Source: Caballeronia sp. Lep1P3 (GTDB lineage: Bacteria > Pseudomonadota > Gammaproteobacteria > Burkholderiales > Burkholderiaceae). Taken from it: a stretch of 64,000 bases of DNA. Positions 4,166-15,474 of this stretch are shown piece by piece (position 1 is the first letter of the stretch; every line of letters starts with the position of its first letter). Where the stretch lies: the NCBI RefSeq assembly GCF_022879595.1, contig NZ_CP084265.1, positions 2,232,001-2,296,000 of the forward strand, given 5' to 3'. Under the pieces are notes generated by a model that saw nothing but the letters and a program-made list of their open reading frames with translations, made no database searches and had not been told where the DNA came from. Position numbers and translations under genes: made by a program.

Positions 4166-6961
4166 ATGGAAGCACAAAGCAAGCGATCCAGCGCACTCGC
4201 GCGCTGGATCACCGGTCGGCAGTCCTATTTTCTGAAGGTGCATTCCGCACGTGAGACGGACGGCCTTTCGATCCACAACGTCCATGCGACCGAGAAGCTC
4301 GGCGAGCCGTACTGCATTGCGCTCGAACTGACCGCCAAGGTCGAACTGAAGCGCGCCGACCATCTGGGCCAGCTCGCGCGCTTCACCATCGAGCCGCCGC
4401 CGCACGACTGGCGGCAGACCGCCAAACCGGGCGAGCCGCGCACCTTCGACGGCTGTATCACGGGCTTTACGCGCACCAGGAAGACCCGCGATTTCTTCGC
4501 CTACAAGGTCGTCGTGGAATCGACGCTCGCGCGGCTCCGGCTCACCAAGGCCACACGCATCTATCAGGATATGTCCGCGCCCGACATCATCCTGTCGATC
4601 CTGAAGCAGCGTCACGACTTCCTGTCGCACCAGTACGCGTTCAAGCTGCGCAAGCCGTTCCCAAAGCTCAAGTTTCACATGCAGTACCAGATGTCCGATT
4701 GGGACTTCATTCATCTGGTGATGCGGCAAGCGGGACTGTTCTGCTACACGCGCAGCAGCCAGTTCGGGGACGTGGTGACGTTTTCCGATGACGTGGACGG
4801 TTACGTCTACCGGCCCGACGTCATCATTCCCTACCGGGAAATCTCGGGACTGGACGCGGGTCAGGAGTCGGTCTATGCGCTCGAAGCGCGCAGCGAGTCG
4901 ATTCCGGCGTCGATCCGGGTCGCGGACTATAACCCGGCTCAGGCGTGGGAGCGTTTCAACGCGGACGTGAATCTCGCGCGCGACGACAAGACGACCTACG
5001 GCGAGAGTTACACCTACGGCACGCATCATCTGAATGCGACCGAGGCGCAGTGGGAGGCGCGTCTGCGCCATGAGGCCGCGCTCTCTCAGCAGATCACGTT
5101 CGAAGGCAAGAGCACGGACCACGAGTTCTTTGCGGGGCTGGTGGTGCGGCTCGACGAGAAGCTGCCCGACGCGCCGCATGGCTTGCTACTTACCGAAGTC
5201 GTTCACGAAGCCACGCGGGAGAGAGGCTATTCGAACACGTTCAAGGCGATTCCGTGCGAGCGGCCTTATCGGATTGCGCTCGACGAAGCGAACTGGCCCA
5301 AAATCGCCGGTACGCTCTCAGCGCGTATCACGACGCGCGATGACGCGGACTACGCACAGCCCGACGAGAACGGTCATTACACGGCGCGCTTCGACTTCGA
5401 TTTCGAGGACTGGCCCCAAGGCGGCGAGAGCGTTCCGATGCGGCTCGCGAAGCCCTATGCGGGCGCGTTGCAGACGGGGTTCCACTTCCCGCCCTTACGC
5501 AACACGGAAGTGGCCGTGGCCTTTATCGGCGGCGATCCGCGATGTCCGTATATCGCCCATATGCATCATCACAGCCGAGCGAGCGACCTGATTCACAGGC
5601 TCGACGGCTGGAACACGCGCGCGGCGATTCGCACCCCCAGCAACAACAAGCTGCGCCTCGAAGACGCCAAAGGCAAGGAAGGCGTCAAGCTCTCGACCGA
5701 CTACGGCGGCAAGACCCAACTCAATTTGGGCTATCTGGTCGACTCCAAGCGTCAGAAAAGAGGCGAAGGGTTCGAACTGCGCTCCGATGAATGGGGCGCG
5801 CTGCGCGGCGGCAAAGGCCTGTTTCTGAGCGCCGACAAGCAGGCCAATGCAGGCGGTCAGGCGCTCGATATGTCGGCGGCGATGACGCAGTTGCAAACGG
5901 CCCACGCGCGGATGACGAGTCTGTCGCAGGCAGTCAGCAAGGCGAAGGCCGTCGTCGCGGATTGCGAAGCGCAGCAGGCCTTGCTCGAAACGCAGATCAA
6001 GGACTTGCAGCAGGCCGTGCTGCTCGCGTCCGCACCGCACGGCGTTGCGCTCACCAGCGGCGAACACATGCAACTGTCGGCGGGCGGGCATCTGTTCACC
6101 ACGACGGGCGGAAATGCAGACGCGGCGATCGGCGGCAACTTCACGGTCGCGGCGGGTAACGCCGTGTCGTTGTTCGCGAACGCCCAAGGCATCAAAGCGG
6201 TCGCCGCCGCTGGAACCATCGACGTGCAGGCGCAAGGCGATGCGCTCAATCTCGCCGCGCTAAAAGGCGTGAGCCTATCGAGCACCAATGACGCCATTAC
6301 GCTCACCGCCAAGACCGAGCTGATGCTCTATTGCGGCGGCTCGTACATCAAGCTCACCAATACGGGCGTCGAAATTGGCAGTCCGTCCGATGTGATGCTG
6401 AAGGGGCCGCTTCGGATCGGCGGCTCCGCGACCAAACAGAACGCACTTCCCCTCATGCCGAAGCAGGAGCAGACCGGCATGCAGCTCTGGCACACCTACC
6501 CGAACGGCGAGCCGGTGAAGAACGCGGGCTATCGCGTGGACTTCCCGAACGGTTCGTGGCGCATGGGCAAGCTCGACGAAAACGGGCGCGGCACGGTCGC
6601 GAACACGCCGCGCGGCGGCGGCGCGGTGAGCTACTTCGAGGATGGCTACACCGTCAAGAGCGACCAGCGCAACTGGGCGCAGCCGAAGAACGCACCGGGC
6701 GCGCAGGACGCCCCCGCCGATGCAACGGACGCGCCGCCGAGCCTGACCGGTCCCGCGATGGCCGCTGTGTCGAACGCCGCTGCGCAGGCGGCGACGCAAG
6801 CCGTTCCCGGGGCGCTGCAGGCGGTCGAGAAGGCGCTGGTTTCCTCTATGGGCCAGCAACTCGGGCAGACGGTGCAGCGCGTCGCTGTCCGTTCCGCGCC
6901 GCTCGGCTCGATCGGGCAATCGCTCACGCCGTCCGTCGCGAAAGCCCTGACCTCTGAATAA
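4166..6961 (+). CDS. vgrG: Type VI secretion spike protein VgrG with C-terminal extension
   Basis: VgrG trimers form the puncturing spike of the type VI secretion system and carry effectors on their tip. This 931-residue protein has a gp27-like N-terminal part (to about residue 370), a gp5-like OB fold starting near 378 (GTLSARITTRDD), a DUF2345 region of glycine/alanine-rich beta repeats from about 515 to 765, and a distinct C-terminal extension from about 772 (MQLWHTYPNGEPVKNAGY) ending in an Ala-rich helix. That tail probably serves as a cargo adaptor for the Rhs protein encoded 23 bases downstream, but this is inference. No tss genes accompany it, so it is an orphan spike island. Confidence 0.95.
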   Translation: MEAQSKRSSALARWITGRQSYFLKVHSARETDGLSIHNVHATEKLGEPYCIALELTAKVELKRADHLGQLARFTIEPPPHDWRQTAKPGEPRTFDGCITGFTRTRKTRDFFAYKVVVESTLARLRLTKATRIYQDMSAPDIILSILKQRHDFLSHQYAFKLRKPFPKLKFHMQYQMSDWDFIHLVMRQAGLFCYTRSSQFGDVVTFSDDVDGYVYRPDVIIPYREISGLDAGQESVYALEARSESIPASIRVADYNPAQAWERFNADVNLARDDKTTYGESYTYGTHHLNATEAQWEARLRHEAALSQQITFEGKSTDHEFFAGLVVRLDEKLPDAPHGLLLTEVVHEATRERGYSNTFKAIPCERPYRIALDEANWPKIAGTLSARITTRDDADYAQPDENGHYTARFDFDFEDWPQGGESVPMRLAKPYAGALQTGFHFPPLRNTEVAVAFIGGDPRCPYIAHMHHHSRASDLIHRLDGWNTRAAIRTPSNNKLRLEDAKGKEGVKLSTDYGGKTQLNLGYLVDSKRQKRGEGFELRSDEWGALRGGKGLFLSADKQANAGGQALDMSAAMTQLQTAHARMTSLSQAVSKAKAVVADCEAQQALLETQIKDLQQAVLLASAPHGVALTSGEHMQLSAGGHLFTTTGGNADAAIGGNFTVAAGNAVSLFANAQGIKAVAAAGTIDVQAQGDALNLAALKGVSLSSTNDAITLTAKTELMLYCGGSYIKLTNTGVEIGSPSDVMLKGPLRIGGSATKQNALPLMPKQEQTGMQLWHTYPNGEPVKNAGYRVDFPNGSWRMGKLDENGRGTVANTPRGGGAVSYFEDGYTVKSDQRNWAQPKNAPGAQDAPADATDAPPSLTGPAMAAVSNAAAQAATQAVPGALQAVEKALVSSMGQQLGQTVQRVAVRSAPLGSIGQSLTPSVAKALTSE

Positions 6962-6984: not shown

Positions 6985-9900
6985 ATGGCAACAACGGAAA
7001 CAGCAAGCAAGCCCGCGCCGCGTCAGATACCGGAAGGCATCAAGCACAACGCGGAAGCACGGCGCGTCGTGCCTTACGACATCACGCCGAAGAACCCGAC
7101 GCCGAAAACGACGCCTCAACTCAAGCAGGTCGCGGTCCAATCGGTCGAGAACCACGGCCACGAAATCTTCGTCCAGTGCCTCTACATGCTGCCGGTGGTC
7201 GGCAACGCGATGTCGCTTTATGACGTAGGCACTGACATTTATCGCATTTGCAGCAAGCCGGGCGAAGCCAAGACGCTGACGGCATGGGGCATTCTCGCGA
7301 TCGACGCCATCGGCGTGGTTCCGGCTGCGGGCAACGCGAGCCGTCCCGCGCGCGCGGTCGTGAAGGAAGTGTTGCTCGCGTTTGCCAAGGGCGCGGCGAT
7401 ATCGGTGCTGGTCGACCTGTTCTGGGCGACGGCGGGCGGCGACGTGATCGCGTTCATGGAAGAGTTGGACCACAAGCTCAAGTGGTGGCAGCAGGACATC
7501 GATCACGGCGTGTACAAAGCGTCGCAAACCGTGCGCAGCTTCGTCCAAAACCCCGTGTCGGCGGCGCAGCAGATGCGCCTCCTCGAGAAGAATACGGGCT
7601 TTCTATCGTGGATACCGTCGGGCGAGACCATCGCGCTGCACGGCATCGACGAGTTGCTGAAGGTGTCCGGCCAGCGTCAGACGATCCTCAAGTGGCTCGA
7701 TGACTTCGACCGCAACCGCAGCGCGATGCTCAAACAGGCATTCGGCGATGTGGCCACCGCCGGCTCGCTCATCTTCATGGCCGCGCAGATCGTCGCCGAG
7801 ATCAAAGCGCGCAAGGCGCGCGGCGTTCCTTCGCATTCGGCGCACGCCGCGCCCGGGACCGCGCACGAGCCGCACGTCAAATCCGGCGAACACCGAGAAA
7901 CGACGCAAATGGGCGCGAAGGCGAGCGACCTGCCGACCAAGAAGGGCTGCGGCTGTCCGGCCACCGCCAGCCCGAAGCCCGTCAATTACGCGCTGGGTGA
8001 CGAACATCTGGAGCAGACCGACTTCGCGCTCGACGGCATCGTGCCGATCGTGTGGACGCGCAGCTATCGCTCCAGCCTTGCCGCCTACGACGACAGCCCG
8101 CTCGGTGCGCGCTGGTCGAGTCCGTATCACCTGTCGCTCGAAGAGCGCGACGGCGCGTTGACCTTCTTCGACCCGGACAACCGCGCCGTGCCGCTGCCGA
8201 AGGTCGAGGTGGGCGAAGCGGTCGAGGTGCCGACCGAGCAATTGACGGTGAGCCGCCCCGACCGGCGCAGCGTGCGACTGGCGTACCCCGATGGCGCGCG
8301 CGAGGACTACGAACTGCACGGCACGACCACGCGGATTCGGTATCGCCTCACCGCGCGCACCGGTCGCGACGGCCTCGGGCTGAGCTTCGGCTACAACGAA
8401 AGCGGCGAACTCGTCACGATCGGCGACGGCGCAGAAAACAACCTGCGGCTCGAATACGAGCGCGGGCGCGTCGCTGCGATCTATCGGAACGGCGTCGCGG
8501 GCCTCGAGCGTGAAGCGATCGCCCGCTACGCCTACAGCGAGCAAGGCGACCTGATCGAGCATCAGGACGTGCTCGGCCATACGCGCGCCTACGCCTATCA
8601 GCATCACCTGCTCACGCGCTATACGGATTTCAACGGCAAGCGCGCCAATCTCGAATGGGACTGGACCGGCAAGCGCTCGGGCGTGCCCGCGCCCGTCGAT
8701 GCGCGCTGTGTTCGGACGTGGCTGGGCGACGAAGCCGACGCTCGGGTGGAAATTATGGCGCGGCAGGATATGCGCGACGAAACGCGCTTCGAGTATCACC
8801 GCGAGCATTGGTACACCAAAGTCACCGACGCGGACGGCCACGCGACGATGCACCGCTACGACCAGCACAACCGCATCGTGTTGGTCGAATACCCGGACGG
8901 CACCAGCGACGCGTTCAACTGGAACGAGAACAATCAACTCGTCAGCACGAAAAACGCGCTCGGGCAGGTCCAGCGCTTCGAATACGATGCGCAGGGGCGC
9001 GTGACGGCAGTTACCAATGCCCTCTCTCAGACCACGCGCACCGAGTACAACGCCGACGGCTTGCCGGTGAAGGTCACGGACGCCAACGGCGACACCACGA
9101 CGACCGATTACGACGCGCTCGGGCGTCCCGTATCCGTGACCGATCCGGCAGGCCGCACCACGCAATATTCGTGGAGCGGCAACGGGCGTCTGCTCTCGCT
9201 GACCGACCCGAAAGGCGGCGTGAAGCGCTTTCGCTATGACGGCGGCGGCCGGCTGGCCGAATCGACCGACTGCTCGGGCCATTCGACGCATTTCGGTCAC
9301 GACGAGCGCGGCCATCTGTCTCGCGTGACCGATGCCGAAGGCAATCAGACGGTCTACCGGCGCGATGCGCGCGGGCAAATCAAGACGATCACGCGCGCCG
9401 ATGGCGTCGAAGAACAACTCACATGGGACGGCAACGGCAATCTCAAAACCTACCGCGACGGCGCGGGTCAGGTGACGGAATACACGTACACGCCGCTTAA
9501 CCAGATCAGTTCGCGCAATGTCGTCGATCGCCGCACGGTGAGCTTCGAGGAGCGGTGGAATCACAGCGTCCGGTACACCTATGACAAACGGGGACGGCTC
9601 GTCCAACTCACCAACGAGAACCGCGACACCACGACGTTCCGATATGACTCGCTCGGGCAACTGATCGAAGAAACGGGCTTCGACGGGCGCGCGATCAACT
9701 ACGAATGGGACGACGCGGGACGGCTGGTGGCTTCGCGTGAAGGCGACACCACCACGCGCTACGAGCGCGACCCGCTCGGGCGGTTGACGAAGCGCGATGT
9801 GAACGGGCACGCTTCTGAGCGCTTCTACTATGATGCGCGCGGACGGCTCGTGACTGCGCAGAGCAGCGGCAGCAAGGTCCGTCTGCATTACGACGATGCG

Positions 9901-12030
9901 GACAACCTGATCGCCGAAGAACAACTGATCCATCCGGGCGGCGGCGACTATCTGAGCGTCACGCGCCACGAATACGACGCGCTCGGCAACCGCGCAAAGA
10001 CGATCCTGCCGAACACACGCACGATCGACTGGCTGCGCTACGGCTCGGGCCACGTGCATGGCGTCCTGCTCGACGGCAAGCCGCTGCTGGACTTCGAGCG
10101 CGACAAGCTGCATCGGGAGACTGGCCGCACGCATCGCAGCTTCACGCAGTCGCGGCAGTACGATCCGGTTGGACGGCTCAAGCAAATGTCCGTGCGCCAT
10201 GCGAGCGCGGCGAATCTGGCCGCCGAACTCGCGGGGCGCAAGTTTCACTACAGCGCGGCGGGGCATCTCGCGCGCATCGACGATCGCGCGCGCGGCGCGA
10301 CCGAATACACCTATGACCCGGTCGGACGGTTGCTGCGTTCGGTTACATCCGATCTGAAAGAAGTGTTCGCCTATGACTTGGCGGGCAATCGCGTCGATCC
10401 CGAGAAGGTGGCCGCGCGCCCCGTGGTCGAGTCGGTCGAGGAGCGCGCGACGCGCGAAGCACGCGAGAAGGCTGACGACGACGCATGGCTGCGCGCGCAT
10501 CCCGGCGAACGCTACGCGCCGGCCCGACCGAACCGGCTCTGGGAGGGCGACAAGAAGATTCGCGCGTGGCGCGAGGCGCTGCCCAAGTGCATCGGCAATG
10601 TGCTGAAGGAACTCGACCGCGTGAAGTATGAATATGACGCGCGCGGGAACCTGATCGCCAAGACCGACGCGGACGGCGTGCGGTGGCGGTACGAGTGGGA
10701 CGCGGCGAATCGGCTCAAGGAAGCGCGACGCTATCCGCGCATTCCATCGCAATTCGATCAGCGGTATGGCGGGCAGCAAGTCGACCCGGACCCGCAGCCG
10801 GAGCTTGTGGCGCGGTACGGCTATGACGCCTTCGATCGGCGCGTGTACAAGCGCGTGCAGGCCGCGAGCGGCCCGAGCGAGACGACGCTCTTCACATGGG
10901 ACGGCGACGTGCTGCTCATGGAAGAGCGCTTCGAGGCATTGCCAAGCGAGTACGGGCGCGAACGCAGGTCCGAGAATCGCGGATTCAGCATCGTGCGCGA
11001 AGATGCGAGCGACGAGTACTCGCTGCCGGTCGCGCAGCGCATGCACTCGCTCGATGGCGGTTATCAGTGGACGCGGGCGTCGCTCTACCTGCACGAACCG
11101 GGGACGTTCGTGCCGCTCGCGCGGCTGGACGAAACGTTGGTCGAACCGGCGTTTCTCGCAACCGGCACGGACGGCCAGTTCGTGCAGGTGCCGGCGAAGT
11201 CACGGCATGCGACGCTGTTCTATCAGAACGACCATCTCGGCACGCCGCAGGAATTGGTCGATGATTCGGGTAAGGTGGTGTGGCTCGCGCGGTACAAGGC
11301 GTGGGGTGGATTGAAGCGTGCGCCTTACGGCAAGCCGGACCCGAATGAGGCGGATAACGCGATTCGGTTTCAGGGGCAGTACCAGGACGAAGAAACCGGA
11401 CTGCACTACAACCGGCATCGGTATTATGATCCGCGAAACGGGCGCTATATATCTCAGGACCCCATTGGGCTTGAGGGCGGCCTCAATCCATTCGAGTTTG
11501 CCCCCAACCCTGTTTCTTGGATTGACCCTCTTGGGCTGAGTAACAAATATATCCCGGCACCTAAGGACTTGCCCGGCTTCCCAGATGCAATACGCGCAAA
11601 GCCAAAGACTTCCGTTCAACGTGGCGGAGGTCTAAGAAAGCGATGGAAGCGCGCCGATGGCTGCATCTGTGAATGGGATTCTCAGCATGGCGAAGTGGAG
11701 GTTTACAACAAACGAGGCAAGCACCTAGGCGCCTTCGACGCCACGACAGGAAATCCCATCGCAGGGAAAGCTGCCAACCCCAGAAGGACTATTGAGTCTC
11801 ACCTGCAAAATTCGATCTCGCTCGCGCGTGCTCCCGAGTGGTCGATCGGGGCGCAGTCCCACCTTTCCATCTCGGACGGTCGCGCGGGGCGCGAACAAGG
11901 CTTCGGGCGAGTCTTTGAACCAGCAGCGCAGCCACGCAAGAACAAAAAATATGGGCGCAAGCCCCAGGCGGACGATGGCGCGCAACAGCCAGCGCAAGTT
12001 GTAGCCCGCCGCGCACAACACTGCGTGTAA
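6985..12030 (+). CDS. Rhs effector with colicin E3-like C-terminal toxin, 3' end altered by an IS
   Basis: A 1681-residue Rhs polymorphic toxin, presumably loaded on the upstream VgrG. Residues about 55-150 contain hydrophobic segments. A DUF6531 region starts near 330 (KKGCGCPATASPKPVNYALG), followed by many YD repeats (for example YDALGRP, YDARGRL) forming the Rhs cocoon. The core ends in the self-cleavage motif with Asp1492 (DPIGL) and Asp1514 (DPLGL); cleavage is expected after Leu1518. The released tail holds RWKRADGCICEWDSQHGEVE, matching colicin E3-type ribosomal nucleases. From codon 1605 onward (after 11796) the reading frame runs into an inserted IS and adds 77 foreign residues; the original end was Glu-Pro-stop. 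Toxin-region base composition is visibly lower in G+C than the core. Confidence 0.93.
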   Translation: MATTETASKPAPRQIPEGIKHNAEARRVVPYDITPKNPTPKTTPQLKQVAVQSVENHGHEIFVQCLYMLPVVGNAMSLYDVGTDIYRICSKPGEAKTLTAWGILAIDAIGVVPAAGNASRPARAVVKEVLLAFAKGAAISVLVDLFWATAGGDVIAFMEELDHKLKWWQQDIDHGVYKASQTVRSFVQNPVSAAQQMRLLEKNTGFLSWIPSGETIALHGIDELLKVSGQRQTILKWLDDFDRNRSAMLKQAFGDVATAGSLIFMAAQIVAEIKARKARGVPSHSAHAAPGTAHEPHVKSGEHRETTQMGAKASDLPTKKGCGCPATASPKPVNYALGDEHLEQTDFALDGIVPIVWTRSYRSSLAAYDDSPLGARWSSPYHLSLEERDGALTFFDPDNRAVPLPKVEVGEAVEVPTEQLTVSRPDRRSVRLAYPDGAREDYELHGTTTRIRYRLTARTGRDGLGLSFGYNESGELVTIGDGAENNLRLEYERGRVAAIYRNGVAGLEREAIARYAYSEQGDLIEHQDVLGHTRAYAYQHHLLTRYTDFNGKRANLEWDWTGKRSGVPAPVDARCVRTWLGDEADARVEIMARQDMRDETRFEYHREHWYTKVTDADGHATMHRYDQHNRIVLVEYPDGTSDAFNWNENNQLVSTKNALGQVQRFEYDAQGRVTAVTNALSQTTRTEYNADGLPVKVTDANGDTTTTDYDALGRPVSVTDPAGRTTQYSWSGNGRLLSLTDPKGGVKRFRYDGGGRLAESTDCSGHSTHFGHDERGHLSRVTDAEGNQTVYRRDARGQIKTITRADGVEEQLTWDGNGNLKTYRDGAGQVTEYTYTPLNQISSRNVVDRRTVSFEERWNHSVRYTYDKRGRLVQLTNENRDTTTFRYDSLGQLIEETGFDGRAINYEWDDAGRLVASREGDTTTRYERDPLGRLTKRDVNGHASERFYYDARGRLVTAQSSGSKVRLHYDDADNLIAEEQLIHPGGGDYLSVTRHEYDALGNRAKTILPNTRTIDWLRYGSGHVHGVLLDGKPLLDFERDKLHRETGRTHRSFTQSRQYDPVGRLKQMSVRHASAANLAAELAGRKFHYSAAGHLARIDDRARGATEYTYDPVGRLLRSVTSDLKEVFAYDLAGNRVDPEKVAARPVVESVEERATREAREKADDDAWLRAHPGERYAPARPNRLWEGDKKIRAWREALPKCIGNVLKELDRVKYEYDARGNLIAKTDADGVRWRYEWDAANRLKEARRYPRIPSQFDQRYGGQQVDPDPQPELVARYGYDAFDRRVYKRVQAASGPSETTLFTWDGDVLLMEERFEALPSEYGRERRSENRGFSIVREDASDEYSLPVAQRMHSLDGGYQWTRASLYLHEPGTFVPLARLDETLVEPAFLATGTDGQFVQVPAKSRHATLFYQNDHLGTPQELVDDSGKVVWLARYKAWGGLKRAPYGKPDPNEADNAIRFQGQYQDEETGLHYNRHRYYDPRNGRYISQDPIGLEGGLNPFEFAPNPVSWIDPLGLSNKYIPAPKDLPGFPDAIRAKPKTSVQRGGGLRKRWKRADGCICEWDSQHGEVEVYNKRGKHLGAFDATTGNPIAGKAANPRRTIESHLQNSISLARAPEWSIGAQSHLSISDGRAGREQGFGRVFEPAAQPRKNKKYGRKPQADDGAQQPAQVVARRAQHCV
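11539..11795 (+). other. Rhs-CT toxin domain, colicin E3-type 16S rRNA nuclease
   Basis: Sub-region of the rhs gene: residues 1519-1604, the fragment freed by Rhs autoproteolysis. Colicin E3 nuclease ends with a domain containing KRW, YEWDSQHGELE, GSFDPKTGNQ and PKRNIK; this tail has KRW, CEWDSQHGEVE, GAFDATTGNPI and PRRTIE in the same order. Asp1565, His1568 and Glu1572 correspond to colicin E3 Asp510, His513 and Glu517, and Arg1601 or its neighbour to Arg545. The known family cleaves 16S rRNA in the decoding centre and stops translation. The residue matches are from memory of the colicin E3 sequence. Confidence 0.88.
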
Positions 12031-13308
12031 CGCGTCGCCGATTTGCCCTTTTAGCCAGCAACGCCGCATGCCGTGCTCCTGTTTTACGTGCCCGATGATC
12101 GGCTCGATCGCTTGGCGGCGCTTTAACCACTTTCGCTGCGTACTGCTTAGCGCCTTGTGTTTACCTCGATGAATCAGCTGCACCGGCGCAACATCGGCAT
12201 CCACACCGCGAAATCCGAGGTCGGCCAGCACGATCTTCGGCGTCGGCGTGCCCGGCAAATCCTGCAGCAAGATGTTCGTTTGTTCAAGTTGCGCGGCCAG
12301 CGTGTGCCCGTCGTAAGGGTTGCCTGCAAACGAGCGCGCACCGACGATCAGACCCTGCTTCTCCGTGATCGCGAGACTGACTTTGACACCGAATTCGTAG
12401 GGCTGGCGGGCCTTGCCTTTGGATATGCATTCCACTTCTGGCGCGTGAAGCGCGTAGAGTTTGTGCTTGTCCTTCGCACGCTGACGGCAGATACGCCAGG
12501 CGCGCTCCAGCCAGATTCGCAAGGATGCCTGTTGCTCAGCGGATGCACCCGATAATTTGCGTTCGATGTCACGCAGCAATCGTCCGAGTATCGTGCGCTG
12601 ACGCTTGAGCACCCGGCGCAGACGCTTGAACTGTTTGGCATGCGCATAGCCGCCTGCCCGGCGACGCAACTGTTTCCCCTCGCGCTGGTAGGTCTGCTTG
12701 AGCGTCAGTCCGGCGCGTTGGGCGAGCCTTGCGAGTTTTCCTCGTGCAACCTCCAGCAAGCGGCTGTCAGTCGGGTAGGCAATTGCTTTCTCCTGGACCG
12801 TCGTATCGACAATCACGCGCTCGAACTCGGCCGGCCTTACGGCTTTCATTTGCACGGCCGCCGCAATTGTTGTCGCGAGCATCTCCTCGACGCCGGCTTC
12901 GCCCAGCGCCTGCCGAAAGCGCACGAGGTTGGTCGGATCGCATGGCAGGCGCGGCTGGAAATAGTCCTCGCCGCAGAAGTACTGGAAGTACACGTCTTGT
13001 GCCCAGCGCTCGCAAACCGACTCATCACTTTCGTTGTATGCGTGCTTCAGGTAGAGCAGTCCGACCATCAGCCGGGTCGACAGGCGCGGACGTCCGGCAG
13101 CGCTATGGCCCGCGCCCGCCAGCTTGGGCGCCGTGCCGAACAGATCAACCTCTGCGCTCAGCCGGCCTTCGCGAGCACGCCGCTCGAAGATCGGTGTCAA
13201 CGTCGCTTCTATCGACGTCCAGGGCATTCGGTTAGCCAGTACGGCCAGCGGGTGCCGCAAATCGATCATTGCATCCAGGCGGCTGCGGAAGAAATCCGGT
13301 GTGCTCAT
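11725..13308 (-). CDS. IS5 family DDE transposase
   Basis: A 527-codon frame for a transposase of the IS5 family (IS1478-like in my memory). It starts MSTPDFFRSRLDAMIDLRHP and shows catalytic candidates Asp168 (VIVDTTVQEKAI), Asp363 (VLADLGFRG) and Glu402 (RRQAIEPIIGHVKQEHGMRR, the Y/R-x-x-E-like region), with a basic insert between the first and second acidic residues. The frame does not close inside the IS: the last 23 codons and the stop lie in the antisense strand of rhs. The native enzyme probably ends earlier in function or tolerates a site-dependent tail. A nested hairpin just upstream of the ATG may limit read-through expression. Confidence 0.9.
   Translation of the reverse strand: MSTPDFFRSRLDAMIDLRHPLAVLANRMPWTSIEATLTPIFERRAREGRLSAEVDLFGTAPKLAGAGHSAAGRPRLSTRLMVGLLYLKHAYNESDESVCERWAQDVYFQYFCGEDYFQPRLPCDPTNLVRFRQALGEAGVEEMLATTIAAAVQMKAVRPAEFERVIVDTTVQEKAIAYPTDSRLLEVARGKLARLAQRAGLTLKQTYQREGKQLRRRAGGYAHAKQFKRLRRVLKRQRTILGRLLRDIERKLSGASAEQQASLRIWLERAWRICRQRAKDKHKLYALHAPEVECISKGKARQPYEFGVKVSLAITEKQGLIVGARSFAGNPYDGHTLAAQLEQTNILLQDLPGTPTPKIVLADLGFRGVDADVAPVQLIHRGKHKALSSTQRKWLKRRQAIEPIIGHVKQEHGMRRCWLKGQIGDALHAVLCAAGYNLRWLLRAIVRLGLAPIFFVLAWLRCWFKDSPEALFAPRATVRDGKVGLRPDRPLGSTRERDRILQVRLNSPSGVGSFPCDGISCRGVEGA
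11787..11795. repeat. Left target-site duplication of the IS
   Basis: Nine bases, gactattga, in the penultimate codons of the toxin, repeated exactly at 13425-13433 on the other side of the IS. Confidence 0.85.
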
Positions 13309-13424
13309 CGGCGCTTCTCACTCCCAGAACATAGGCCAATTCCATATTGGAACTGGGAGTTCCGCAACCCTCTGTTTGCACCTATTACCACGCAGCGCCT
13401 GGCTTCACGGCATTCTGCAAGACC
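11796..13424 (-). mobile_element. IS5-type insertion sequence inserted at the rhs/immunity junction
   Basis: An element of about 1629 bp bounded by a 9-bp direct repeat (gactattga) at 11787-11795 and 13425-13433. Removing the element and one repeat joins the toxin codons to Glu-Pro-TGA and the immunity ATG, so the boundaries follow from the reconstruction. Terminal inverted similarity is imperfect: the left end contains CTGCAAAATTC and the complement of the right end contains TTGCAGAATGC. If the ends are counted from AGTC (left) and GACT (right), the duplication would be only ATTG. The single transposase gene runs opposite to rhs. Confidence 0.88.
13320..13360 (-). promoter_or_regulatory. Nested hairpin in the transposase leader
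   Basis: ACTCCCAG (13320-13327) pairs with CTGGGAGT (13353-13360), and inside it CCAAT (13336-13340) pairs with ATTGG (13346-13350). The structure ends 12 bases before the transposase ATG. Hairpins at this position in other insertion sequences reduce translation from read-through transcripts; that role is inferred here. Confidence 0.45.
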
Positions 13425-13433
13425 GACTATTGA
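13425..13433. repeat. Right target-site duplication of the IS
   Basis: Second copy of gactattga. It is followed by acc and then ATGA, which is the original toxin end (Glu-Pro-stop) overlapping the immunity start. Confidence 0.85.
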
Positions 13434-13436
13434 ACC

Positions 13437-13700
13437 ATGAGTAAATTTGAATTACATCGATATGTGTCGGCGTTCGAGAAGAACGGCGACGCGCATGTTT
13501 GCGACGTCGAGTTCGTTGAGGTACCCCGCATGAGTTTTCTGCAAGCAACTTTCAATGTACCCGCCGAGGACCCAATGTACGACATCGCAGCCATAGACAT
13601 ACGCATCGCCGAGGAACTCAGACCGTATCTTCCGTATGCGTTGGACCTCCAAAGCTACGATTATTTTCTGGAATGCGATCAACAGGAGAGAAGCGATTGA
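13437..13700 (+). CDS. Probable immunity protein for the E3-type Rhs toxin
   Basis: An 87-residue acidic protein (many Asp/Glu, ending ECDQQERSD). Before the IS arrived its ATG overlapped the toxin TGA (ATGA), the classic toxin-immunity arrangement, and it is the first gene after the toxin. Its blocks NVPAEDPMYDI and LQSYDYFLECD resemble a small domain family I remember as DUF7683. The C-terminal part (LRPYL...YDYFLECD) also loosely resembles the colicin E3 immunity protein (LQPYF...NEYFVSFD), which is weak evidence. Base composition is AT-richer than the chromosome. The IS now separates it from the rhs promoter, so its expression needs another source. Confidence 0.75.
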   Translation: MSKFELHRYVSAFEKNGDAHVCDVEFVEVPRMSFLQATFNVPAEDPMYDIAAIDIRIAEELRPYLPYALDLQSYDYFLECDQQERSD

Positions 13701-13764
13701 CATTAAGCGTGCAGCCCAAAGCAGGCTGGCCGAGTCACTCAGGCTATAAGGAGGGCAATGATTC

Positions 13765-14262
13765 ATGAGTAAGTTCAAGTTCTCGTCATGGCTGTCAAGT
13801 TCTGAGGGGCCCCTCGTCGTTATGGACGAGGCCAAAGCCGCTTCGTGGAACGGGATCGATGGCCAACCATCAGACTACGATCTCGCATGTCAGACGCGCG
13901 ACTACACAAGCAAGCTAACAGTGCATGGCGCGGGGGCGCTAGTGCTTGCAGACGAGCCGTTGCAAACGGCCATTGCTACGGCGGCCGATACGCTTTTGCT
14001 TGTGAGATGGAAATGGGCGGACGGCGAAGCCGATGTGCAAGCGGAAGTCGAGAAAATGGATCTCGGTACCGTTTCTTATGTTGAGAAGTTGGACGTCGAA
14101 TGGATCGATAGACAGCTTGTCATGTTCGACGCGGCAGATGTGTTCGATCCCCGAAGGTGTCTAGCTTTCGTAACTAGTTCACGCAGAAACAAAATATTGA
14201 CCTTCATGTACGAGCCTACCCCTCGTACATCCCTTTTGGTTCATGCTTTCAACCCGTTCTGA
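13765..14262 (+). CDS. Imm21-like immunity protein without cognate toxin
   Basis: A 165-residue protein whose N-terminal half (WLSSSEGPLVVMDEAKAASW, then DYDLACQTRDY, LVLADEPLQTA and LLLVRWKWADGEADV) fits the Imm21 immunity family as I remember it. Such proteins neutralise polymorphic toxins delivered by T6SS or contact-dependent systems. A good ribosome site (AAGGAGGG) precedes the ATG. The start again reads ATGA, and in the frame ending at that TGA a short upstream peptide is open. No toxin domain partner is present, so it appears to be an orphan left from an earlier effector module. Confidence 0.72.
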   Translation: MSKFKFSSWLSSSEGPLVVMDEAKAASWNGIDGQPSDYDLACQTRDYTSKLTVHGAGALVLADEPLQTAIATAADTLLLVRWKWADGEADVQAEVEKMDLGTVSYVEKLDVEWIDRQLVMFDAADVFDPRRCLAFVTSSRRNKILTFMYEPTPRTSLLVHAFNPF

Positions 14263-14290
14263 ACGACGCAAGTGTTCAAGGAGAGTACTG

Positions 14291-14369
14291 GATGACCTCA
14301 ATTGCATGCGTCGGCGACACTACCACTCGCGGCGGTCGCGTCATCACCGCCTCGGACGCGATGGACATC
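14291..14369 (+). repeat. Imperfect direct repeat, PAAR 5' end copy 1
   Basis: About 79 bp matching 14801-14879 with roughly seven mismatches, covering the ATG and the first 26 codons of PAAR. The two copies flank the Imm10-like gene. Confidence 0.85.
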
Positions 14370-14480
14370 CATGATGGCCGGTCGCAAACGAAGGGTGCAA
14401 ACAACCATGAAGCTGAAGTTCACGGCCGGCGACGTAAGCTATGCACTGGAAGATGGCATCCATATGCTCAGTTTGGTTGA
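14292..14480 (+). pseudogene. Broken PAAR gene, 5' fragment only
   Basis: The first 26 codons (MTSIACVGDTTTRGGRVITA and then SDAMDI) are nearly identical to the intact PAAR gene at 14802. After that the frame diverges into unrelated sequence that overlaps the start of the next immunity gene, ending at 14480. The remaining metal-binding and tip residues are missing, so it cannot make a functional spike tip. It records a recombination at the 5' end of PAAR. Confidence 0.82.
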
Positions 14481-14793
14481 TGATCCAAGCTCGCCTCACG
14501 ACTACGTAATATTTCAACGAGGCACTGATTTCGACGACCAAGATCGTGCCTTGGGCCAGGATACATACTACGTAGAGATCGCTGAGAATGGCGTCGCAGG
14601 ATATGGCGGCGTCGCTTCAATATCCTATCGGGACCGTGCTCTAGAGATTCGCCTCGAGGGAAATGCGAAATGGCGACAGCGTCTAGAACTGGTAGAAGTC
14701 GAGTTTAAGACCAGTTCCGCCCAGTCTGAAATGCTCAAGCAGGGCTTACTGAATGTATTTGCAGGAACATCCACCGACTTATCTTTTTCTTAA
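14407..14793 (+). CDS. Imm10-like immunity protein without cognate toxin
   Basis: A 128-residue protein beginning MKLKFTAGDVSYALEDG. The pattern YVIFQRGTDFDDQDRALGQD followed by YYVEIAENGVAGYGG and a C-terminal LLNVFAG segment fits the Imm10 immunity family as I remember it. The start at 14407 is chosen because the family alignment begins there and AAGGG lies 10 bases upstream; a longer frame to 14302 overlaps the PAAR fragment and has no family similarity. The start codon reads ATGA, like the other two immunity genes. No matching toxin is nearby. It sits between a broken and an intact PAAR 5' end. Confidence 0.72.
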   Translation: MKLKFTAGDVSYALEDGIHMLSLVDDPSSPHDYVIFQRGTDFDDQDRALGQDTYYVEIAENGVAGYGGVASISYRDRALEIRLEGNAKWRQRLELVEVEFKTSSAQSEMLKQGLLNVFAGTSTDLSFS

Positions 14794-14800
14794 GAAATGC

Positions 14801-14879
14801 GATGACTTCAATTGCATGCGTAGGCGACACCACCACTCACGGCGGTCGCGTCATCACCGGCTCGGACACGATGGACATA
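14801..14879 (+). repeat. Imperfect direct repeat, PAAR 5' end copy 2
   Basis: Second copy of the PAAR 5' segment, here in the intact gene. See 14291-14369. Confidence 0.85.
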
Positions 14880-15062
14880 CTTGGCAAGCAGGTCGCCCGC
14901 GTCGGCGACCTTGTATCGTGCCCCGAACACGGCACGAACATCATCGTCCAAGGGTCCGACATGCTGACCGACACCAACGGCCAGCACGTCGCGTTGCACG
15001 GGCATCTGACGGCGTGCGGTTCCCGGTTGCTCGCCTACGGAGAACACGGGTCGATCGAGTGA
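14802..15062 (+). CDS. PAAR-domain T6SS spike-tip protein
   Basis: An 86-residue single-domain PAAR protein. PAAR proteins form the sharp tip on VgrG and bind a metal ion. The N-terminal CVGDTTTHGGRVI is the standard opening, followed by ARVGDLVSCPEHGTNII and HGHLTACGSRLLA; the His and Cys residues in THGG, CPEHG and HGHLTACG are the likely metal ligands. It is the final gene of the vgrG-rhs-immunity island and probably completes the spike, since the Rhs N-terminus shows no PAAR domain of its own. Confidence 0.93.
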   Translation: MTSIACVGDTTTHGGRVITGSDTMDILGKQVARVGDLVSCPEHGTNIIVQGSDMLTDTNGQHVALHGHLTACGSRLLAYGEHGSIE

Positions 15063-15474
15063 GCGCATTCCGAGGCGCTATGTGTCCGCACTTGATGCGC
15101 AAGGTGCGCAAGGGTACGAAAGGCATGAACCCTAAGTTTCGGGTACCACAATACCACGCTGCTTCGCGGACCCGTCTCCCTGCCCCTTTGCGCTCGACAT
15201 CGCCTCTAACGCTTCAACCGAAAATTCAGACAAACCGCATATCAATCCCTCAAGCCCCAACGTATCTTGACAACGCTCCTGCCGCACGTATCCCCCACAT
15301 CGTGCGACGGGAGGCTTCAATGGGAAGGTTGGCATTGGCCTCGCGAAATTACGCGAGGCCTTTTTTTCGCCGACGCGCGAAATCATCCTCGTCGCAGAAG
15401 AGACGAAACCGACTGAACGCCGCCCATCGCCCGCACTCTAACCGCGCTCGACGACTCAACGCGGACCTCTGCCC
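15063..15474. other. Non-coding stretch after the Rhs island
   Basis: No convincing gene is seen in these 412 bases. Open frames here lack ribosome sites and family similarity. The only clear element is the hairpin terminator at 15338-15368. I found no repeat of the tRNA-Ser 3' end that would mark an attachment site. Confidence 0.6.
15338..15368 (+). terminator. Rho-independent terminator closing the T6SS effector island
   Basis: GGCCTCGCG and CGCGAGGCC form a perfect 9-bp stem with a six-base AT-rich loop, followed by seven T. It ends transcription from the immunity/PAAR side. Confidence 0.85.

What the first reader, a model, noticed from the sequence alone, without database searches (positions are those of the whole stretch)
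11539..13700. IS inserted exactly at the toxin/immunity junction of an Rhs effector
The Rhs tail ends NPRRTIE at 11795 and an IS follows. On the far side the sequence continues gactattga-acc-ATGA. Deleting the IS plus one 9-bp repeat gives Glu-Pro-TGA overlapping the immunity ATG. The insertion leaves all E3-type catalytic residues in place, while the immunity gene loses its link to the upstream promoter and is now 1.6 kb away. A cell should not survive with active toxin and silent immunity, so either the IS supplies an outward promoter, the tail disables the toxin, or the toxin is only active after secretion.
Basis: partly seen in the sequence, partly recalled or inferred. Interest (0 to 1): 0.85.

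Follow-up and report, generated by a model that had tools for sequence, protein, structure and literature searches.

The report
Jumping gene splits toxin from antidote
In a bacterium of the Burkholderia family a mobile DNA element has landed between a weapon's toxin part and its antidote gene, leaving the toxin part nearly whole but cutting the antidote gene off from its usual start signal, so it could show whether such weapons need their antidote at home.

Summary
The insertion is real. A 1634-bp IS5-family element (11795-13428) sits in the junction of an Rhs effector's colicin-E3-type toxin domain and its immunity gene. The target duplication is 4 bp (ATTG), not 9: other copies in the genome show that five of the nine bases match the IS ends by chance. 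The toxin domain reaches to within one residue of the usual end; all seven residues listed for colicin E3 activity are kept, followed by 77 IS-encoded residues predicted disordered. The downstream gene is DUF7683; its predicted fold matches the colicin E3 immunity protein, and 9 of 9 other over-cut-off DUF7683 loci examined lie directly behind an E3-type toxin. In 6 of 6 family relatives toxin stop and immunity start overlap (ATGA), with a ribosome-site-like stretch in the toxin's last codons. The IS parts that stretch from the immunity start; no convincing replacement was found. The premise that such a cell should die is not supported: for another Rhs effector, immunity was not needed against self. 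Most likely this is a recent natural immunity-down allele, tolerable at home but open to attack by intact kin. Expression and activity were not measured.

The parts
4166..6961 (+). vgrG, T6SS spike protein, 931 aa, 23 bp upstream of rhs
   Evidence: TIGR01646 230.9 bits over cut-off 121.8; TIGR03361 185 just under its 186.35; Phage_GPD, T6SS_Vgr
6985..12030 (+). rhs effector frame as it stands, 1681 aa: Rhs cage, E3-type toxin domain and IS-encoded tail
11539..11796 (+). E3-type rRNase toxin domain, residues 1519-1604 (86 aa), after the DPIG...DPLGL Rhs cleavage motif; its last codon straddles the IS left end
   Evidence: PF09000 80/80 positions; 47-48% identity and 1.6-1.9 A rmsd to four colicin E3 chains; AlphaFold block means 74-93 over the first 90 model residues
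11782..11788 (+). AGAAGGA, ribosome-site-like stretch in the toxin's last codons, now left of the IS
   Evidence: duplex energy -5.9 over 11776-11794, reached by 11.7% of 2000 random 19-mers; comparable energies in 6 of 6 family relatives
11791..11794 (+). ATTG, left copy of the 4-bp target duplication
11795..13428 (-). IS5-family insertion sequence, 1634 bp, imperfect inverted ends AGTC...GACT, transposase on the minus strand
   Evidence: the inner 1624 bases are found letter for letter in 8 of 8 full copies
11797..12027 (+). 77-residue tail of the Rhs protein, encoded by the IS strand opposite to the transposase
   Evidence: no Pfam match at E<=1; pLDDT under 50 for model residues 90-164
11725..13308 (-). 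transposase frame, 527 aa; no stop codon inside the IS, so its end is encoded by the flank
13429..13432 (+). ATTG, right copy of the 4-bp target duplication
13437..13700 (+). immunity gene, DUF7683, 87 aa, predicted Im3 fold
13765..14262 (+). Imm21 immunity protein; no toxin seen beside it
   Evidence: PF15589 62.3 bits over 30.7
14291..14368 (+). fragment of a second PAAR gene, repeat of 14801-14878
   Evidence: 72 of 78 bases identical; PF05488 17 bits, below its cut-off of 27
14407..14793 (+). Imm10 immunity protein; no toxin seen beside it (start codon uncertain)
   Evidence: PF15588 52.9 bits over 28.6 for the frame 14302-14793
14802..15062 (+). PAAR spike-tip protein, 86 aa
   Evidence: PF05488 84.6 bits over 27

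Best explanation
A recently active IS5-family element inserted, with a 4-bp target duplication, into the last codons of a T6SS-type Rhs effector whose C-terminal domain is a colicin-E3-type rRNase. Shown by sequence: the toxin domain is kept to within one residue of the usual end and carries an IS-encoded tail; the immunity gene (DUF7683, predicted Im3 fold) is intact as a coding sequence but parted from the rhs frame and from the ribosome-site-like stretch that its relatives carry in the toxin's last codons. Inferred: immunity protein is made poorly or not at all, the domain may still be active, and the cell tolerates this because Rhs toxins are held in the Rhs cage until delivery, so the cost falls on attack by intact kin.
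For: IS bounds and duplication from the other copies. Full PF09000 match, fold match to colicin E3, R495, R497, D510, H513, E515, E517 and R545 equivalents present (7 of 7; with passages of PMC4905994). 17 of 18 homologues end within six residues of the domain, 8 of 18 in EP one residue past the point reached here. DUF7683 lies directly behind an E3-type toxin in 3 of 3 distant loci and 6 of 6 other Burkholderiaceae loci; the E3 immunity protein is its only fold match at E<=0.001. Ribosome-site energy before the immunity start is -4.9 to -11.6 in 6 of 6 family relatives and -0.5 here. No sigma-70-like promoter. One DUF7683 gene found in the genome. Tse15 immunity not needed against self (PMC11461821 passages). 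Two matches to PF05936, T6SS_VasE (TssK, name recalled), in the genome.
Against: No expression or activity data. Other genes of this locus score weakly too (VgrG -3.5, Rhs -1.5, PAAR -0.4), as do the toxin-linked DUF7683 genes of L014 and L016 (-1.4 and +0.4), so a weak site does not prove silence. An in-frame ATG at 13530 has a better site (-7.0), though it would lose 31 residues. Only one T6SS component was searched for. Only 1 of 18 homologues (P0019) runs on long after the domain, so the tail may impair the toxin. The cage argument rests on another effector. No uninterrupted copy of this very locus was found.
Confidence: 0.55

Rival explanations
1. The immunity gene is still expressed: by read-through of the rhs transcript, by a weak promoter in the IS right end, or by an IS frame that ends at the TGA overlapping the immunity ATG and so keeps a stop-start coupling.
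For: No strong + strand terminator seen in the IS (4 terminator-like sites on both strands of 11500-15100 against 3.7 expected by shuffling; one weak + strand site inside the IS). One + strand frame of the IS is open for 291 codons up to the right end and stops at the TGA overlapping the immunity ATG (ORF 12640-13440).
Against: No sigma-70-like site; the best score in 13309-13436 is reached by 13.1% of 1318 stretches of the window. In-frame starts of the IS frame have weak ribosome sites, -4.1 at best, and no Pfam match. It is complementary to the transposase gene, where long chance frames are usual in G+C-rich DNA (general knowledge).
Confidence: 0.2
2. The toxin is dead: the foreign 77-residue tail blocks folding, caging, delivery or ribosome binding, or the locus is not expressed, so silent immunity costs nothing.
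For: 17 of 18 homologues end within six residues of the domain; tail predicted disordered.
Against: Domain and all seven listed residues intact; colicin E3 runs on for six residues past R545 (chain of 551 residues); one homologue has about 100 further residues.
Confidence: 0.23
3. Assembly artefact: a collapsed or misplaced IS repeat.
For: Eight copies alike over 1624 bases; three have unequal flanks.
Against: At this site both flanks carry the same 4-bp duplication, and each flank fits its side of the toxin/immunity pair seen in relatives.
Confidence: 0.02

Closest known systems
Colicin E3 / Im3 (PF09000 toxin with its immunity protein)
   Same: toxin fold and the seven listed activity residues; predicted immunity fold (3eip_A); gene order
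   Different: carried at the end of an Rhs protein; immunity protein has no sequence match to a solved structure at E<=0.001; junction split by an IS
[quoted passage not shown]
   Same: E3-type domain; immunity ATG overlaps the toxin TGA; toxin remnants with intact immunity genes known in other strains
   Different: a bacteriocin, not Rhs; no IS in the junction described in the passages seen
Caged T6SS Rhs effectors such as Tse15 (PMC11461821, passages)
   Same: Rhs repeats, cleavage motif (one position differs), C-terminal toxin
   Different: other toxin; immunity there is encoded upstream and was removed by experiment, not by an IS
IS5-family elements (NF033578)
   Same: transposase family, 4-bp duplication, imperfect inverted ends
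   Different: transposase frame has no stop codon inside the element, unlike the related copies in L049 and L051

Membership tests
IS5 family insertion sequence | transposase matching NF033578 above cut-off | tested here: met
   524.2 bits against 275
IS5 family insertion sequence | inverted ends and short target duplication (length range recalled) | tested here: met
   AGTC...GACT ends, imperfect; perfect 4-bp duplication in 5 of 8 full copies
Colicin E3-type rRNase toxin | PF09000 over the full domain | tested here: met
   80/80 positions, 98.2 bits against 22
Colicin E3-type rRNase toxin | D510, H513, E517 plus R495, R497, E515, R545 equivalents | tested here: met
   7 of 7, read from the alignment; list from PMC4905994 passages
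Colicin E3-type rRNase toxin | 16S rRNA cleavage | not testable with these tools
   needs an assay
T6SS Rhs effector | Rhs repeats and Rhs core domain next to vgrG | tested here: met
   vgrG 4166-6961
T6SS Rhs effector | cleavage motif DP(I/L)GXXGGX5YX8D(P/S)XG(L/W) as given in PMC11461821 (passage) | tested here: inconclusive
   read by eye: DPIGLEGGLNPFEFAPNPVSWIDPLGL fits except F at the Y position
T6SS Rhs effector | delivery by a working T6SS | not tested
   only PF05936 was searched, two matches in the genome
E3-type immunity protein (Im3 fold) | Im3 fold | tested here: met
E3-type immunity protein (Im3 fold) | gene directly behind an E3-type toxin in relatives | tested here: met
   9 of 9 other over-cut-off loci examined: L014-L016 and L091-L096; toxin frame broken in L095
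E3-type immunity protein (Im3 fold) | neutralises the toxin | not testable with these tools
   needs an assay

The most novel reading that the evidence does not exclude
The IS did not silence the immunity gene but took over its coupling: a 291-codon open frame on the IS strand opposite to the transposase runs through the right end and ends at the TGA that overlaps the immunity ATG, so a transcript crossing the IS could still drive immunity by stop-start coupling, now behind an IS-encoded leader instead of the toxin.
Probability: 0.07. Interest if true: 0.5.

Novelty: new member of a known kind. Interest (0 to 1): 0.4.

Why it matters
It is a natural allele that separates an almost intact E3-type Rhs toxin domain from its immunity gene. 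If the inferences hold, it makes the question whether producers of caged Rhs toxins need immunity at home, or only against kin, testable without engineering a toxin. As by-products, DUF7683 is linked by fold and neighbourhood to immunity against E3-type toxins, and in the nearest relatives the ribosome-site-like stretch of the immunity gene lies inside the toxin's last codons, so that a break there can harm immunity before it harms the toxin.

Tried and rejected
The 9-bp duplication: rejected, because 8 of 8 full IS copies end in GACT. A canonical outward promoter: none found. Rfam families in 11400-14000: none at gathering scores. A second immunity copy: PF24731 gave one match in the genome; PF03513 gave none, but that search rang in no control either, so it shows little. 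Plasmid records: neither the toxin DNA nor the immunity protein matched; the IS matched one record, Mycetohabitans rhizoxinica, at 75.7%. Same-genus relatives: 3 of 58 genomes matched the toxin domain at E<=0.001, one being this genome and two being partial, so no uninterrupted copy of this very locus was found; the junction was judged on other genera. Rhs-core relatives (38 of 58 genomes) and IS relatives (33 of 58) were listed, but apart from the transposase frames of L049-L051 their loci were not opened, so whether ISs hit Rhs junctions elsewhere was not tested. The window protein and the ORF behind the L082 toxin gave no pairwise alignment, and the window immunity protein matched no solved structure by sequence at E<=0.001 (one unrelated chain at E 0.52); the family link rests on Pfam, fold and neighbourhood. 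PHROGs gave nothing. The immunity query did not hit L093 by tblastn; its immunity gene rests on PF24731 and the ORF. The immunity model used 52 of the 120 listed hits plus the window protein; the toxin model had four sequences. Searches for a printed account of this arrangement: (listings only), and DUF7683 by name, (0 papers); other searches served residues, promoters and Rhs cages. Passages only were seen of PMC4905994, PMC8765631 and PMC11461821. The tools do not hold most subscription papers.

Full report
Setting. The window lies on a 3.10-Mb contig of a 6.18-Mb genome in 6 contigs. A 12-kb stretch of its 819-kb contig is most similar to Caballeronia replicons: 9 of 24 plasmid-collection records with a match, among them the seven best rows, are Caballeronia. 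I therefore take the host to be a Caballeronia, by similarity only. The locus reads vgrG (4166-6961), rhs (6985-12030), an IS, then a small ORF at 13437-13700, Imm21, a PAAR fragment, Imm10 and PAAR.

The insertion. The transposase is IS5 family. The genome holds eight full copies of the element, this one included, plus one copy in two pieces; the inner 1624 bases are the same in 8 of 8. All eight end in GACT on the right, and seven of eight begin with AGTC on the left (L008 begins CGTC). At this site the four bases ATTG flank the element on both sides; four other copies also have a perfect 4-bp duplication (CTTG, ATTT, AATC, GAAT). The remaining three copies (L004, L005, L008) have unequal flanks, but each flank matches a flank of another of the three, as expected if they recombined with one another. 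The element is therefore 11795-13428, 1634 bp, and the duplication is 4 bp. The sameness of the copies suggests a recent spread (inference).

The toxin. Residues 1523-1604 match PF09000 over its whole length, and the predicted structure matches four colicin E3 chains (47-48% identity, 1.6-1.9 A). PMC4905994 (passages seen) names D510, H513 and E517 as essential and R495, R497, E515 and R545 as contributing in colicin E3; all seven have equivalents here by the alignment. Of 18 homologous proteins, 17 end within six residues of the domain (one, P0019, runs on by about 100), and 8 of 18 end in EP, one residue past the point reached here. The frame then continues for 77 residues encoded by the IS; these match no Pfam family and are predicted disordered, though with an alignment of only four sequences, none of which covers the tail.

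The junction. In 6 of 6 family relatives the toxin ends in [I/V]EP and its TGA overlaps the immunity ATG by four bases; the same overlap is seen in L082 and L014, that is in 8 of the 17 loci looked at; the other nine, among them L015 (+19), L016 (+3) and the Im3-like pairs, have other spacings. PMC4905994 describes the same overlap for pyocin S6 (passages). In the six family relatives the last codons of the toxin hold a ribosome-site-like stretch (energies -4.9 to -11.6). Here a similar stretch (AGAAGGA, 11782-11788; -5.9, reached by 11.7% of 2000 random 19-mers) lies left of the IS and the ATG lies right of it; the bases now before the ATG score -0.5, which 82% of random 19-mers reach. Against this, VgrG (-3.5), Rhs (-1.5) and PAAR (-0.4) of the same locus and the DUF7683 genes of L014 (-1.4) and L016 (+0.4) also score weakly, so a low score is not proof of silence. 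An in-frame ATG at 13530 has a better site (-7.0) but would lose the first 31 residues.

Promoter and coupling. No sigma-70-like site was found in 11500-15100 (0 found, 1.5 expected by shuffling), and the best score in 13309-13436 is reached by 13.1% of 1318 stretches. One IS frame on the + strand, open for 291 codons, ends at the TGA overlapping the immunity ATG, so stop-start coupling through IS sequence is possible, but its start sites are weak (-4.1 at best).

How it works. I think the IS has made a natural immunity-down allele of an Rhs effector with a nearly intact toxin domain. Shown by sequence: the insertion, the intact domain, the parted signals. Inferred: low immunity, retained toxicity, survival. 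The genome has two PF05936 (T6SS_VasE; TssK by recall) genes, so delivery is plausible but not shown. The predicted cost is sensitivity to kin with the uninterrupted pair.

Verdict. IS insertions in effector loci are an ordinary kind of event (general knowledge); the position is instructive, and the DUF7683 assignment and the embedded ribosome-site-like stretch are useful by-products. I rate it a new member of a known kind, interest 0.4.

Noticed in passing
window 11725-13308 and L001-L008: The transposase frame has no stop codon inside the IS in any of the eight full copies; its C-terminus is encoded by the flank (4 to 91 extra residues in seven copies, and a fusion running off the fetched stretch in L004), whereas related elements in L049 and L051 stop at 478 aa.
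   Followed up: partly
L004, L005, L008 (contig 2 of the genome): Flanks of three IS copies match one another in a ring (CTTT, CATT, ACTG), as if the copies had recombined or the assembly had crossed over there.
   Followed up: partly
L009 and L010 (contig 6): One IS copy is split by about 1.3 kb of other DNA; the insert was not identified.
   Followed up: no
window 13765-15062: Imm21, a PAAR fragment, Imm10 and a full PAAR follow with no toxin seen beside them; the fragment repeats the start of the full PAAR (72 of 78 bases), which suggests past cassette replacement.
   Followed up: partly
window 13431-13447 and 13759-13775: The DUF7683 and Imm21 genes begin in a similar 17-base stretch around ATGAGTAA (82%), perhaps a shared cassette edge; two copies only, may be chance.
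   Followed up: no
L092, near 1232-1477: A family relative's E3-type domain has leucine where the essential histidine is expected, with an immunity gene behind it.
   Followed up: no
L091, L092, L095, L096: Short Rhs core matches recur downstream of the toxin/immunity pair, as in arrays of spare Rhs tips.
   Followed up: no
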